Below, piece by piece: positions 55,743-63,415 of a stretch of 64,000 nt of DNA. Every line of letters starts with the position of its first letter. Within the stretch, counting starts at the first letter, position 1. The stretch comes from Cryoendolithus antarcticus (taxonomy: Eukaryota > Ascomycota > Dothideomycetes > Cladosporiales > Cladosporiaceae). The position numbers and the translations under genes were made by a program. Under the pieces are notes generated by a model, which had not been told where the DNA came from, ran no database searches, and saw only the letters and a list, made by a program, of their open reading frames with translations. The stretch covers positions 248,001-312,000 of the forward strand of contig NAJO01000001.1 in the NCBI GenBank assembly GCA_002077065.1, in the 5' to 3' direction.

Positions 55743-56860
55743 ATGCTTTCGCATGGCGCTATAGTTGTTGCATCACTCATCCTTGTTGCAGCTGCGCAGA
55801 ACACATGCCGATTCCCAAACGGGACTCTGCTCCCAGATAGCCCGGAATGGAATATCTACCAGCCCTGTCCCACAGGTCAGGGTCCGTCAACCATCTGCTG
55901 CGCGCTTGGACGATCCAATCCTCCGTACGGTAGTTTATTACAGGGCTTCACTCAAGACCAATGTCTCCCGAACGGACTCTGTCAGAATGGACTGACCATG
56001 ACCGATGGAAAGCAGGTCACCACATGGGTGAGTGGGTCTTCTGTTCAAGTTTGGAGATGGCAGCTGATGCGTGCTAGTTCGTCGACTATTGCACGGAGTT
56101 TGGACAGTCGGACAGCTCCATTAGTTGTATCAACACGTGTGCTTCGGAAGCTACCAGTAACATGACGCCATGTGACGGTACTCAGAACAGCACGAGATGG
56201 TGTTGTGGAATCGGCACAGACTGCTGCTATACCGGAATAGGAGTCGTCGTTCTGCAGCAGGTCTTCGGAAGTGTGGCTGCCAGTGCGATTACAAGTGCGA
56301 CTTCGAGCGCACCTTCCAGTACATCCTCCAGTGCGGCTTCGAGCGTTCCAGCGACTACAAATCCGATCGCGACTTCGAGCTCATCTCCGCAATCGATTTC
56401 GAGTACTCCGTCCAGTGCGTCGTCAAGCGGATCGAACCCTCTGACTAGCCAAGCGTCAACCGAATCAAACCTTCTCACTAGCCAAGCGTCAGTCTCAACC
56501 TCTTCTACAATCTCTCAGACGACCTCAGCCGCGTCTCCTATGACCTCGAGCACGAACGCGTCGACTTCGAAGACACTCAGCGGCGGCGCAATAGCCGGTA
56601 TCGTCATTGGCGTAGTCGCTGGTCTAGCACTTGCAGCAGCAGCATTTCTACTTGCACGGAGTGCCCGTCGTGACAGGCACGCTGAACATATAGCGCCATC
56701 AAATGGTGGGCCCTCGGCTCCTGTGGAAGCTCCGGCCTACAGTCCACGACCCGCTATGCAGGAGCTGGGCGCATTGGGCAAGCAAGACTATGTGCCAGAG
56801 ATGCCTGGAGCACCACCAAGCGAGCTGTACGGTTCCACTGCTTCGATTGCACACAAGTAG
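55743..56860 (+). CDS. Cys-rich single-pass surface protein, copy 2
   Basis: Two exons, 55743..56027 and 56078..56860 (50-bp intron, donor GTGAGT, acceptor GCTAG, phase 0), giving 355 residues. A signal peptide (LSHGAIVVASLILVAAAQ) is followed by the same ectodomain as copy 1: CRFPNGTLLPDSPEWNIYQPC, CCALGRSNPPYGS, CLPNGLCQNG, then FVDYCTEFGQSD and WCCGIGTDCCYTGIG. The stalk is about 115 residues of Ser/Thr/Ala, with a twice-repeated LTSQAS unit. The transmembrane helix is AIAGIVIGVVAGLALAAAAFLL, followed by an Arg-rich stop and a cytosolic tail ending MPGAPPSELYGS. The tail resembles copy 1 (MPGSLPVELHGD). The heavily O-glycosylatable stalk suggests a cell-wall-spanning sensor; that is inference from layout. 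Confidence 0.82.
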
Positions 56861-57765: not shown

Positions 57766-60700
57766 ATGGGATCCCTTGATTTTCCGTCTCTGTCCTTCGG
57801 CGACTTCTCTCTGCCTTCCTTCGAGCTGCCGCCTTTGACAGCCAAGCCAGCGTCTGACGATGGTCCAGAGTCTGGCGAGGAAGAAGACACTCCTCGGGAG
57901 TCAAGCGATGGTGGGTCGTGGGTGGAGCAGAGCACAGCTGTGAGCACGGGAGAGACAGATGCGACGGAGCTCTCGAAGCAGTCAAAGGAGGGGCATACAC
58001 ATTCAGACCAACAATGGGACACTGCACCGCCTCAAGGAGTGCAGCCAGCGCTGAGCAGGAGATTCTCGTATGAGTCTGGTGGCGACAATGACCTCAGTGT
58101 TGTGACAGGCGCCGATGAGGAGGTGCCAGGTGAGGTCACTGGAGCCAATGGCAGGTCCACTGCAGAGCTGCCTTGGGCAGAGACGCCGCAAGATGAGGAC
58201 GATGCTGAATTTCAGCGCGTCCTTGAAAATTCGCGACAGACGGCGGCAGAAGACGAGCGACGACGGTCGCGTTATAGTCAGCGACATGCTTACCGACCAC
58301 ATGTTCCTGCTTCGCCAACTGAACGAGATGCCCAGTACAATGCACCACTACATAGAGCACCCTCGGTATCACCCATGGTCTCGGACGACTACTCAACGTC
58401 CTACTCGGGCCCGCCCGTCCATGGTGCACTATCAGTATCACCAATGGTCTCTGATGACTACACAGCGACCTACGCGAGCTCGACCTTTCCATCTGTCCCA
58501 GGAGTCTCGCCAATGCATAGTGCGGACTACTCACAGATTGATTCGCGGCCGTCTGCCATGAGTACCATTGCATCTCTTCCCACGCCACAAAGCATCGGAC
58601 GTACTCCTTCCACGTCCAACAGGCAGGGATCAATAAGAAAGAACGCCGCCACTGCACGACCATCTTCACCACTTGCACGAGAGGCAAGCGCTAGAGCCTC
58701 TCGATCACGTCCACTCAGCAACACATACCGTCCGACTCGGATACCCTTGTCCAGCAGCCCGAATAGGATGGACGGTGGCATGCGATCGCCACAGCTCATA
58801 ATTCCTGACGAGAGCCGTCGCCCACGAGCAGGCTCGTACAACAGTGCACGTATGCAGATTAGAGACTCGTCCAGAGCACGCAGTACGACCTCGGGAGCCA
58901 CATCAGGAGAGTTGTGTGAGGATTGCCAGCGCGTTGGCCCTCGCCGATACTACTGCAACGTCTGCACACTTGTATTCTGTGATACATGTTGGGACCGACA
59001 GCTGATTCACAGATCGAAGCGATTGGCTGTGGGAGCAGGCACGATACCGCATGAGAAGACCGATCAATCGGTCGCAAGGAAAGTGCGCGATGTGCTTACC
59101 CCGGATCTCAGGGATGAGGAGCGAGAGCAACTGCATATTGCCGACATTGACACCACCTGGTTTGGTGTTGTGCGTGAAGGTCACGAGCGACCACTGTTCC
59201 GCGACTATGGCCGCTATGCAAACCTCATTGCCGGCGCCAAAGACTTACGGATGGAGTCTGCTACGGCTTTGTCTGCGACATCTGATCATAGCGAGACTCT
59301 GTACCCGAGTTTGGTGTCCTTTGTCGGCCAAACAGGCGCTGGGAAAAGCACACTGATCAAGCTTTTGATCGATCTGAAGTCTGAGGAAGACGAACGGTTT
59401 CCCACGCCAGTCGTGGGCGCTGTCGGCAGAGACGTCGCCACTTCCGAGGATGTCCACCTTTACCTGGATCCGGATTCGTCTGAGTCTCAAGCACCGCTTC
59501 TGTTTGCTGATTGCGAAGGACTCGAGGGTGGCGAGCGAGACCCAATCGGCGCCAAGCTGAAACGCAAGATGGAGTCCGCTCAGCCCGTTGGGCCTGGTGG
59601 CCGTCGCAAGCCTCGCCTCAAACATACATCAGAACGTGAGCTGATCTGGGCGGACACGCCGAAGAAGCAATCACGAGAATTCGCTGTGGCCCATCTGTAC
59701 CCTCGACTACTGTATACTTTCAGCGACGTCATCTGCTTCGTGCTGCGAAATCCTAGGTAAGACCCAGCTCGCTCGGATGCAACCTTGGCTGACTATGACA
59801 GGGTAATTGAGAGCGTATTGGAGCGGCTTGTTGATTGGGCTGCTGCTGCGCTGGAAAAGGTTTACTTCCTGACTGTCCTGCTCCAAGTAGCCACTCTGTA
59901 CTGACGGTTTCAGTCATCGAACCAACCGGTCCTGCCGCACGCAATTCTCGTCCTCAATGCTAGCGAAAATGACATTCCTGAAGACCTCTGGGACGTCGAT
60001 AACGCTACCGAGTCTCTGATGGAGTCGTTGGCGAGAACGGTATACCAGAACAGTAAGTTCTCATTCACCTCTCGAGAAAACCTGAGGGCACTGACTCAGG
60101 ACCCAGGCACCTTCAAACGCTATGCACAGTTCTGGCGAGAGAGGAATCGTTCCGTGGAAAGCGTTCAAGACCTGGTGCTATCGTATTACAGCTCCTTGCG
60201 GGTCGTGCGCATCCCGACTACTGGCCGGCCCAAGCTCATCCGTGAGCAAGTTGAGAAGCTCTCAGATGGCATCAGGTGGGCTAGTAAGCAATCGAGAGAG
60301 CGGAAGCTTGAGCTCAGGATGCTTCTTGACGCTGACGATTTCGCGCCTTATCTGTCCAATGCTTTCGATCACTTCGCTGAGAATCTGAACACGCCCTTCG
60401 ACTTCGTTCAGGCGTCATTCGTCAACTCTCCTATCCCTAACGACTTTGGAGGCAATATTCTGAAGCTTGCCTTGCAAGTCATGGAGTGCTGGGTAGATGT
60501 TGCGAAGGCTGCGCCGATCTTTGAAGAATTGAGTTATCTAGTGGCGTCGAGTATTCTCTTGGATGCTGCGCGGCATAAAATACGAGGGACGGCTGAGCAG
60601 ATCTTTCCTCAGTACCTAGAACACCTGGACAACGCACTGGAAAACTTCTGCGATCGACATTGGCCCTGCGAATATTACGATCCGAAGAGACAAGGTGGCC

Positions 60701-63415
60701 GCTGTGTCAACGTACGCAGTGGGCACGGTGCGAAAGGTCACCAGTCGAAGTCTGGGAAGCTACTGGCCGCCGGTGACTATGTCTCAGAATTCTCCTTCCG
60801 CGACTACCAGCGAGTCTTCCAGGAAGACACCTATCGCATGCTGGTGCGTCTCCGAGAACGTGTCCAGGACAAGGAGCGCAATGGTAACATGCCAGAAGAG
60901 CAAGCTGCTGCCGAAGTGCATAAGGAGATGGTGCTTCCGTACTTCTTCCAGCACGCCTCTCGTGGTAACGTGCGATCATTCGTAAGTCATACGATCTGCT
61001 ACAGCTGCCTGTTTGAGTCTCCTGAGCACGCTTTACCTTGTGGGCATATTATCTGTACCACATGTCTGCGGACATATGGCAAGTCACATCTAAACCGATA
61101 CGTGGAGATACCTGAGTGCCCAATCGAAAAACGCGAGCGACGATTCCGATCTGCCTGGAAAGTCAATCTGAAGCCTGCGAGCTGCGGCGTTCGACTGCTC
61201 ACTCTTGACGGCGGAGGTGTTCGAGGCATAGTCGAGCTGGAGATACTTAAGCAGCTCGAGCGTGAGCTGGGTGGCCGAGTCAGCGTTCAAAGCTTCTTCG
61301 ACCTGATCGTTGGTACGAGCACTGGCGGCATCATCGCACTTGGACTCACAGCCCGCAACTGGACCGTCGAGCAGTGCACTCAACACTTCGAGGCGCTATG
61401 TGCGAAGGCATTTACGCTTCGTAAGGGCATGAATATGCCAGGCGTGGGCTGGCTGGTCTCGAACTACAATCACTCGATGTACGAGACGCAACCTTTACAA
61501 GAAGCGTTGATCGAGGCATTCACTGAAGATCAGTACCTATTCGGTGGGCAGCGATCTGAATCAGGCACAATGGATGTCAAAGTCGCGGTAACAGCGACTT
61601 CAGCGGCAGGAAGCGCGGTGGTACTGGCAAATTACAATCGATTTTGCACAGAGAAGCTGTCGTACATGTTTCATCGGCCTGAGAAACGCAATGGTGAGCT
61701 CAAGACCTGGGAAGCTGCACGAGCAACTTCAGCAGCCCCAAAGTACTTCAAGCCACTGTGCCACGAAACGTCGAAGCAGATCTTCTCAGATGGCGGCATC
61801 TACCACAACAACCCGATACACATCGCAGAACGGGAACGTCGTCTCATCTGGCCGACCGTGGACGAGCAAGGTCCAGATGTTATTGTCAGTATTGGTACTC
61901 TGTTCTGTCGGAAGGTGAAGGAAAAGAAGAGTATGAGGTGGACCTCCTCGCCCCGAGGTATTGTGGCCCACGGACGCTTCTTGACAAAGTTGGCCAATGA
62001 CCACCTGCACACGTCTTTAGACTCGGAGAAGACCTGGAACGAGTTCCTCAACATACGAGCACCGCGTGGCAAAGAGAAGGACCGCTACATTCGTATCAAT
62101 CCTGAGATCGACGAGCATCCGCCCAAGCTCGATGACGTTGGTCAGATGAAGAAGCTGCAAGAACGCACGAGATTGCTTGTTGCGGATGATCCACGGATCA
62201 AGGCCCTTGCCAAAAGACTTGTGGCTACAAGTTTCTATCTGGACATCGTTGGCGATGTGCGAGAAGACGTAAAGGGAGATTTGTACGAGGTCACAGGTGC
62301 GTTCTGGTGCAGACAATATCGCGCTGTCATCTGCTAATATCCCACTTGCAGGCTACGTTCACAATCGCTTCATTGTGGGCCACGAGATCTCTGAATTGGG
62401 GAAATTACTAAAGGCATGGGCTACCGCTGGCCACGCCGCTCATCTACTGATCACTGAAGTCGACGACGGTATCCATCTCCCGCAAGAGATGCTGTTTGAC
62501 TCGAAGGTTATCAACCGTATGATCCAACACCAAGTCTTCCGGATGGACCCTGTGACTATTCGGCGATCTACCAAGTTTGCGAAGACTGATATCTCGCTGT
62601 GCTATACGAAGGGCACATACTACCCCATCAGCGGTTTCCCACGACTTCTTCATGCCGACAAACCGGTCGTTACTGGTTTAGTAGGTCGACATGCGCTGAC
62701 GGTGGCGAGCTCAGTTCGGTGGGCTTCACGAAGCAGATCCCAGCAGCAAAGGCGATTCGATTGGACGCCCCCGGACATCCTGCCGCCACTGGGCGTACAA
62801 GACATTCTTGCCAGCTACGCCAACCCGATGCATTTGCTTGGAAGTGTGACAGACGAGAATCTACTCATGATGAAGTCCCGCGTTGGAGTTGCCGGCATGA
62901 CTGGGCGTGAATCGAACGCCTATCTCTACCAAGCAGATACACACACGACTGCTGGCGCCAGTGCTTACAGCGAGCTGGAAGGCACATCGGCACGTTCGGA
63001 ATTACCTGCATCGCCTGCCGTGCAGCTCCGCGAAGACTTGCCGAAGCTGATCGTCGAGCTACCTGCTACGGAAGCATCAGAGATTCCGAAGTACTGGATG
63101 GCGGATGACGACTGGTCGGAAGCTCGCATGCCTCAGCCACGGGCTGTGGGAAGTATTTATATGAGTCTCTCGTGCGGTGATGTGCTTGAAGTGAGGAAGA
63201 TGCCAGCTGATGGTGAGTGAAATGATTCGATCACTTCCAATGACCTCGTAAACTAACTTCATCAAGGTACATGGCTTGTGTACCGGCCCTCTGACCAGCG
63301 CGAAGGCTGGGTGCCTAGCTCTTGTCTACGGCCGCTGGAGAACCACCGCCCGATCGCAAACCACTCGCCTAGATCGCCATACTCGAATAGTCCCATCGAT
63401 GGGCGGCCATGGTAA
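57766..63415 (+). CDS. Zinc finger-GTPase-RING-patatin phospholipase-SH3 protein (1813 residues)
   Basis: Five exons: 57766..59756, 59802..59859, 59914..62296, 62352..63212 and 63267..63415. Introns are 45-55 bp and all joins keep the frame. Residues 1-380 are disordered with three 23-residue repeats (200-255). Residues 384-415 form a B-box/ZZ-type zinc finger (C384, C387, C397, C400, C405, C408, H415). A P-loop GTPase follows: GQTGAGKST at 521-529 and a DCEG (DxxG) G3 motif at 582. A helical region leads to a RING-type finger from C1045 (CYSC..CGHIICTTC). The patatin domain has LDGGGVRG at about 1115, nucleophile Ser1152 in GTSTGG and Asp1309 in DGG. Residues ~1743-1785 form a C-terminal SH3 fold (SCGDVLEVRK, EGWVPSSCL). 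Probable role: a GTP-gated phospholipase effector with protein-interaction and possible ubiquitin-ligase modules. Function is inference; fungal relatives carry only generic lysophospholipase names. Confidence 0.87.
58363..58530 (+). repeat. Three 23-residue coding repeats (SVSPMxSxDY)
   Basis: Within exon 1 of the GTPase/patatin gene the ten-residue core SVSPMVSDDY occurs at residues 200-209 and 223-232, and a variant GVSPMHSADY at 246-255. The period is exactly 23 residues. Ser-Pro in each unit could be a proline-directed phosphorylation site. Confidence 0.8.

What the first reader, a model, noticed from the sequence alone, without database searches (positions are those of the whole stretch)
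57766..63415. Zinc finger-GTPase-RING-patatin-SH3 megaprotein
Five recognisable modules occur in one 1813-residue chain: a B-box/ZZ-like finger, a P-loop GTPase with G1 and DxxG, a RING-like finger, a patatin with intact Ser/Asp dyad, and a C-terminal SH3. It has the logic of an NLR (disordered or sensing N-terminus, nucleotide switch, lipase effector) but uses a GTPase instead of a NACHT/NB-ARC module and has no repeat sensor. It could be an undescribed class of switch-controlled phospholipase.
Basis: partly seen in the sequence, partly recalled or inferred. Interest (0 to 1): 0.88.

Follow-up and report, generated by a model that had tools for sequence, protein, structure and literature searches.

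The report
Fungal GTPase-phospholipase fusion protein
A fungal gene encodes one long protein that joins zinc fingers and a membrane-remodelling-type GTPase to a fat-cutting enzyme; the design is shared by many filamentous fungi, its function is untested, and it may be a GTP-controlled phospholipase.

The parts
57766..63415 (+). Whole gene: exons 57766-59756, 59802-59859, 59914-60053, 60108-62296, 62352-63212, 63267-63415; 1795 aa plus stop
   Evidence: Splice model checked against 120 homologues and a second genomic copy; dN/dS 0.032
57766..58905 (+). Low-conservation, Ser/Pro-rich N-terminal region (residues 1-380), probably disordered
   Evidence: Few homologues align here; dN/dS 0.19 between the two copies
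58915..59010 (+). B-box/ZZ-like zinc finger, Cys384...His415
   Evidence: Each of seven ligands kept in 130-139 of 169 aligned homologues, the rest nearly all gaps; Pfam zf-B_box E 0.0075, below cut-off
59302..59994 (+). GTPase domain (residues 513-710): G1 GQTGAGKS 521-528, Thr559, G3 DCEG 582-585, G4-like position LNASEND 697-703; interrupted by introns 1 and 2
   Evidence: Conserved motifs; AlphaFold model of relative P0029 matches GBP/atlastin
59757..59801 (+). Intron 1 (45 bp)
59860..59913 (+). Intron 2 (54 bp)
60054..60107 (+).
   Evidence: Residues absent from 120 of 120 aligned homologues; 104 bp in the second copy
59995..60648 (+). Helical middle region after the G domain (residues 711-910)
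   Evidence: Long helices at mostly high pLDDT in the models of relatives
60667..60744 (+).
   Evidence: C, C, H, H kept in 161-163 of 169 aligned homologues, most of the rest gaps
60997..61128 (+). RING-like finger (residues 1027-1070), seven ligands, eighth replaced by Glu1070
   Evidence: zf-C3HC4 E 0.0016 (below cut-off) in Zymoseptoria relative P0007
61201..61824 (+). Patatin-like phospholipase core: GGGVRG, Ser1134 (61318-61320) in GTSTGG, Asp1291 (61789-61791) in DGG
62224..62641 (+). Conserved C-terminal domain ending in PISGFPR (residues 1436-1556), split by intron 4; perhaps what new Pfam PF28431 describes
   Evidence: Alignment; the 39 homologues that carry PF28431 all extend through it, but so do many without it (inference)
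62297..62351 (+). Intron 4 (55 bp)
63155..63337 (+). C-terminal SH3-like domain (residues 1728-1770), split by intron 5
   Evidence: SH3_2 E 6.9e-4, below cut-off; Cladosporium relative P0003 E 1.4e-5, over cut-off
63213..63266 (+). Intron 5 (54 bp)

Best explanation
The gene encodes a large GTP-switched phospholipase. A dynamin-superfamily G domain of the GBP/atlastin/RNF112 type with a helical middle region is joined, through a Cys/His motif and a RING-like finger, to a CapV-type patatin domain and a C-terminal domain. Shown here: the gene model, the conservation, the predicted folds (in relatives) and the intact active-site residues. Inferred: GTP binding makes the G domains pair, as in RNF112; pairing brings patatin domains together or frees their active sites at a membrane, as filament formation is associated with CapV; the enzyme then cleaves membrane phospholipids. 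The fingers may link the protein to ubiquitin, and the variable ends (SH3-like here, SPRY in two lichen fungi) may bind the trigger. A role in stress, non-self or cell-death responses is plausible but unproven.
Against: No biochemistry or expression data. 20 of 147 relatives, and the paralogue pair L018/L019 of this genome, have lost the catalytic Ser. The G4 position reads LNASEND, not RD or NKxD. Sequence profiles do not single out a GBP-like match: P-loops of a septin and an ABC transporter score higher than Sey1. In RNF112 the E3 and GTPase activities are reported as unrelated, which speaks against finger-switch coupling by analogy. Folds were predicted for relatives, not for the window protein. 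CapV control by cyclic nucleotides has no counterpart shown here.
Confidence: 0.5

Rival explanations
1. It is primarily a membrane-remodelling or scaffolding dynamin-like protein; the patatin domain is a lipid-binding anchor and its catalysis is secondary.
For: P-loop kept in 147 of 147 while the nucleophile is lost in 20, at least 4 changes of state on a FastTree tree; the own-genome paralogue pair reads GSGYGG at the nucleophile and keeps the P-loop.
Against: 127 of 147 keep both Ser and Asp; patatin dN/dS between the two copies is 0.002.
Confidence: 0.25
2. It is an NLR-like immune receptor in function: the ends sense a non-self cue, the GTPase oligomerises, and the lipase kills the cell.
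For: Ends vary: SH3 over cut-off in Cladosporium, SPRY (E 7.9e-21 and 5.8e-14) with a sub-cut-off ankyrin match in two lichen fungi. Four members listed for Ascobolus immersus. In Podospora 6 of 9 patatin genes rise during incompatibility (PMC3689799, passages), but which belong to this family is unknown.
Against: No NACHT, NB-ARC or repeats in this protein; 67 further relatives, chosen without the two SPRY proteins and P0003, show no other recognised end domain at E<=0.001; the core evolves slowly between the two copies, unlike a fast-changing receptor.
Confidence: 0.18
3. It is a housekeeping lipid-remodelling enzyme (iPLA2/patatin type) whose GTPase only places it on a membrane such as ER or lipid droplets.
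For: Wide occurrence in Pezizomycotina; patatin close to iPLA2-beta in fold; atlastin and Sey1 work on ER membranes (established knowledge).
Against: Repeated loss of the nucleophile fits poorly with an essential metabolic enzyme.
Confidence: 0.2
4. Two adjacent genes (GTPase and patatin) fused by mis-annotation.
For: Some database entries hold only the GTPase half; several lie on short contigs and may be fragments.
Against: The fusion is continuous in most of the 120 listed homologues; helical region, Cys/His motif, RING and patatin share one 2189-bp exon here, and the G domain joins it through short conserved introns.
Confidence: 0.02

Closest known systems
RNF112 (ZNF179/neurolastin), human brain dynamin-like protein
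   Different: RING is N-terminal in RNF112; no patatin; 11-12% identity in the structural match; B-box and Cys/His motif not looked for in it
Guanylate-binding proteins and atlastin/Sey1 (dynamin superfamily)
   Same: Predicted G-domain fold, G1 and DxxG motifs, a helical region after the G domain
   Different: G4 position LNASEND instead of RD; no Arg in the P-loop (also absent from the own-genome Sey1, GSQSTGKS); fused to fingers and lipase
CapV-type effector phospholipase, plant patatin, iPLA2-beta
   Same: Patatin fold over about 300 residues, Ser/Asp dyad, glycine-rich oxyanion loop; PADLOC effector phospholipase E 1.1e-37
   Different: GTPase and fingers fused; some relatives have lost the nucleophile; cyclic-nucleotide control not looked for
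Fungal patatin NLRs such as PLP-1 (patatin-NB-ARC-TPR)
   Same: Patatin joined to a nucleotide switch in a filamentous fungus
   Different: Switch is a dynamin-type GTPase, patatin lies C-terminal to it, no TPR repeats
Orthogroup OG0000027 of a Sordariales NLR survey (PMC12258605, section 29)
   Same: [quoted passage not shown] the weak Pfam hits here include MMR_HSR1, RsgA_GTPase and, in relatives, Dynamin_N
   Different: The passage does not mention patatin, so identity with this family is a guess

Membership tests
NLR / STAND receptor | NB-ARC, NACHT or other STAND NTPase module | tested here: not met
   No such Pfam hit up to E 10 in the window protein (HMMER filters drop most hits above 0.1); G domain of a relative models as GBP/atlastin type. 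One relative, P0009, has a weak nSTAND1 match at the P-loop, E 0.17
NLR / STAND receptor | C-terminal superstructure-forming repeats | tested here: not met
   None in this protein; a sub-cut-off ankyrin match in two lichen relatives; none in 67 others
Dynamin superfamily, GBP/atlastin/RHD3 branch | G-domain fold | tested here: met
   [not shown]
Dynamin superfamily, GBP/atlastin/RHD3 branch | G1 GxxxxGKS/T and G3 DxxG | tested here: met
   Lys-Ser 118 of 118; Asp 120 of 120, Gly 119 of 119 aligned homologues
Dynamin superfamily, GBP/atlastin/RHD3 branch | RD motif at G4 (recalled as the branch's motif) | tested here: not met
   LNAxE at the end of the corresponding strand, Asn in 120 of 120; position assigned by order of strands, not by superposition
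Dynamin superfamily, GBP/atlastin/RHD3 branch | Sequence-profile similarity | tested here: inconclusive
   hhalign with own-genome Sey1: 72 columns G1-G3, probability 45.7; a septin piece and an ABC transporter score 89.4 and 80.0 over 21 and 29 columns; dynamins 0.9; reversed Sey1 0.2
Dynamin superfamily, GBP/atlastin/RHD3 branch | Nucleotide-dependent G-domain dimerisation | not testable with these tools
   Needs protein
Patatin-like phospholipase | Patatin fold with glycine-rich oxyanion loop, GxSxG Ser and DG[AG] Asp | tested here: met
   [not shown]
CapV-type effector | CapV-like catalytic domain | tested here: met
   Profile search of PDB: CapV best, E 1.2e-27; PADLOC PDLC00758 E 1.1e-37
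CapV-type effector | Activation by a CD-NTase cyclic nucleotide | not tested
   No search for a CD-NTase was made
RING E3 ligase | Eight zinc ligands in C3HC4-type spacing | tested here: inconclusive
   Seven of eight conserved; the last is Glu here, His or Cys in many other relatives
B-box/ZZ finger | Paired Cys/His ligands and profile match over cut-off | tested here: inconclusive
   Ligands conserved, E 0.0075, below cut-off
SH3 domain | Profile match over curated cut-off | tested here: inconclusive
   19.7 bits against 21.8 here; 25.1 in Cladosporium P0003; no SH3 hit in P0004 (E<=0.05), P0006 or P0007 (E<=1)

The most novel reading that the evidence does not exclude
An unrecognised fungal immune or cell-death effector class in which a GBP-like GTPase (animal cell-autonomous immunity) and a CapV-like phospholipase (bacterial CBASS immunity) work in one chain: GTP-driven assembly on a membrane turns on lipid cleavage, RING-type fingers tune it, and interchangeable ends (SH3, SPRY) choose the trigger. 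Pseudo-lipase paralogues would act as regulatory partners.
Probability: 0.2. Interest if true: 0.87.

Novelty: new variant of a known kind. Interest (0 to 1): 0.62.

Why it matters
If the GTPase gates the lipase, filamentous fungi would have a second, non-NLR way to couple a nucleotide switch to membrane lipid cleavage, built from parts used separately in animal (GBP) and bacterial (CapV) immunity. The fusion is common and several genomes list more than one member, so it can be tested genetically, and surveys built on NACHT/NB-ARC profiles would pass it by. It also shows that public annotation can drop whole zinc fingers from such genes.

Tried and rejected
Bacterial origin of the GTPase: a scan of genome contigs with the five-sequence alignment A2 used two peptide patterns; 75 stretches matched a pattern and none was confirmed. 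The scan is weak, so this is only absence of evidence.

Sequence-only proof that the G domain is GBP/atlastin-like: hhalign against two own-genome Sey1 copies, two dynamins, three septin pieces, an ABC transporter and reversed Sey1 did not favour Sey1 by score.

Own-genome GBP-profile matches L028/L029 (17 bits, below cut-off) turned out, by reading the sequence, to lie in ABC transporters.

Transposon cargo: the ToxhAT patatin gene is patatin-TPR, an NLR type (PMC6737239, passages). I dropped this line without testing the locus for a transposon, because the gene has a counterpart on a second contig.

Fold of the C-terminal domain: it was modelled inside P0164, but the patatin domain fills the match list, so its fold is barely tested. 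P0074 was dropped as model target because its patatin lacks the glycine loop and nucleophile region.

Taxa beyond Pezizomycotina: the two searches list only the best 120 of 608 and of 698 hits; the unlisted hits may include patatin-only proteins, so 608 is not a family size, and distant taxa cannot be excluded. Organism groups are read from names by memory, not looked up.

Literature: ten paper searches, all answered; seven aimed at this architecture, three at Starships, RNF112 and CapV. Long result lists were cut (for example 20 of 241). None of the listed titles and abstract starts describes a GTPase-RING-patatin fungal protein. I read abstracts, passages or one section, never a whole paper; most subscription journals are not held.

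On re-checking the calls I lowered the NLR-like rival from 0.20 to 0.18 and the novel case from 0.22 to 0.20, because the ankyrin matches are below cut-off and SH3 is over cut-off in one relative only.
Full report
Gene and genome. The window is part of a 47-Mb, 149-contig genome. A database protein, B0A48_00129 of Cryoendolithus antarcticus, lies on a contig of the same length (1,805,414) and is identical wherever it aligns apart from one junction residue, so the organism is very probably that Antarctic rock fungus (inference). Aligning 120 homologues showed that 18 residues (731-748) exist in none of them; they correspond to a 54-bp GT-AG intron at 60054-60107, and the matching stretch in the second copy is 104 bp. 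The corrected protein has 1795 aa and five introns. The public model instead removes 249 residues including the B-box, 34 including most of the RING, 4 at an exon start and the 18 of intron 3. The B-box and RING are conserved in homologues and carry no amino-acid change between the two genomic copies, with 13 and 14 synonymous changes, so the public model is very probably wrong there.

Second copy and paralogue. Contig C62 holds a full copy (L009): dS 0.60, dN 0.019, dN/dS 0.032 overall; patatin 0.002, G domain 0.008, helical region 0.018; N-terminal tail 0.19 (dS above 1 in the G domain is rough). Seven other pairs compared, on their longest open frames, have dS 0.35-0.91, so the copies are old and look like a genome-wide duplication or hybrid origin (inference from eight pairs). 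A more distant pair, L018/L019, is 37% identical over residues 382-1559; B-box, G domain, Cys/His motif, RING, patatin and the PISGFPR domain are recognisable by eye, but it reads GSGYGG where the lipase Ser should be, with P-loop GVTNAGKS intact.

Family. A search with residues 380-1340 gave 608 proteins at E<=0.001, of which the best 120 were listed, covering 58-100% of the query region; a search from Ascobolus member P0116 gave 698, 120 listed. The unlisted hits may include patatin-only proteins. The named sources in both lists are Pezizomycotina by my reading of the names; unnamed metagenome entries were not placed. Of 169 homologues of at least 900 aa, 22 lack letters in the needed columns and were dropped. 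In the other 147 the P-loop is intact in 147, Ser and Asp are both present in 127, and Ser is lost in 20 (18 Gly, 1 Asn, 1 Pro), with Asp also lost in 10 of those. On a FastTree tree of the G-domain and helical region the Ser state changes at least 4 times (the tool warned of long branches). The switch is thus more strictly kept than the lipase chemistry.

Fingers. The B-box/ZZ and RING ligands are conserved. The eighth RING ligand is Glu in this protein and its near relatives, His or Cys in many others. I propose a metal site; nothing here proves it.

Ends. The C-terminal domain ending in PISGFPR is conserved. The 39 homologues with the new Pfam family PF28431 all extend through it, so PF28431 may be this domain, but many homologues without that label also extend there, and the model is not in the local Pfam. 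SH3 is over cut-off in Cladosporium P0003; SH3-like tails can be seen by eye in P0004 and P0007 although Pfam did not report them. Two lichen relatives carry SPRY (E 7.9e-21, 5.8e-14) and a sub-cut-off ankyrin match. Scans of 67 other relatives found no further end domain at E<=0.001.

Mechanism and relation to known systems. The best-supported reading is a GTP-controlled, membrane-acting phospholipase. G-domain dimerisation is shown for RNF112, where however E3 and GTPase activities were found to be unrelated (PMC12012479, abstract and passages). Patatin plus nucleotide switch as a killing device is shown for the fungal NLR PLP-1 (PMC12881547, passages). Both are analogies. It is not an NLR by the tests made. 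One survey of Sordariales NLRs excluded an orthogroup whose GTPase-type Pfam overlaps resemble those seen here (PMC12258605, section 29); whether it is this family is unverified. In Podospora 6 of 9 patatin genes rise during incompatibility (PMC3689799, passages), again without identity to this family being shown.

Verdict.

Noticed in passing
L018 (contig C139) and L019 (contig C58): Paralogue pair with the same order of modules in one open frame of 1639 codons, with the lipase nucleophile lost (GSGYGG) and the P-loop intact.
   Followed up: partly
window 57766-63415 against L009, and pairs L030/L031, L018/L019, L011/L012, L015/L016, L013/L014, L034/L035, L036/L037: The genes compared come in two diverged copies (dS 0.35-0.91), suggesting a duplicated or hybrid genome.
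   Followed up: partly
C-terminal tails of the family; window protein residues after 1560: Short ELP/ELx motifs recur: 0.95 per last 250 residues against 0.17 after shuffling, in 129 homologues; 87 of 129 have at least one. The pattern was chosen after looking at tails and the homologues are related, so this is a lead only.
   Followed up: partly
window 56078-56860: Neighbouring frame on the + strand: Ser/Thr-rich stretch, one hydrophobic segment and a tail; only a weak Pfam hit (CYYR1, E 0.0019, below cut-off).
   Followed up: no
L025 (contig C23, 25 kb): Partial match to the same family: residues 960-1466 in pieces at about 28-32% identity.
   Followed up: no
database protein P0001 (B0A48_00129): Public gene model drops the B-box and most of the RING as introns.
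   Followed up: yes
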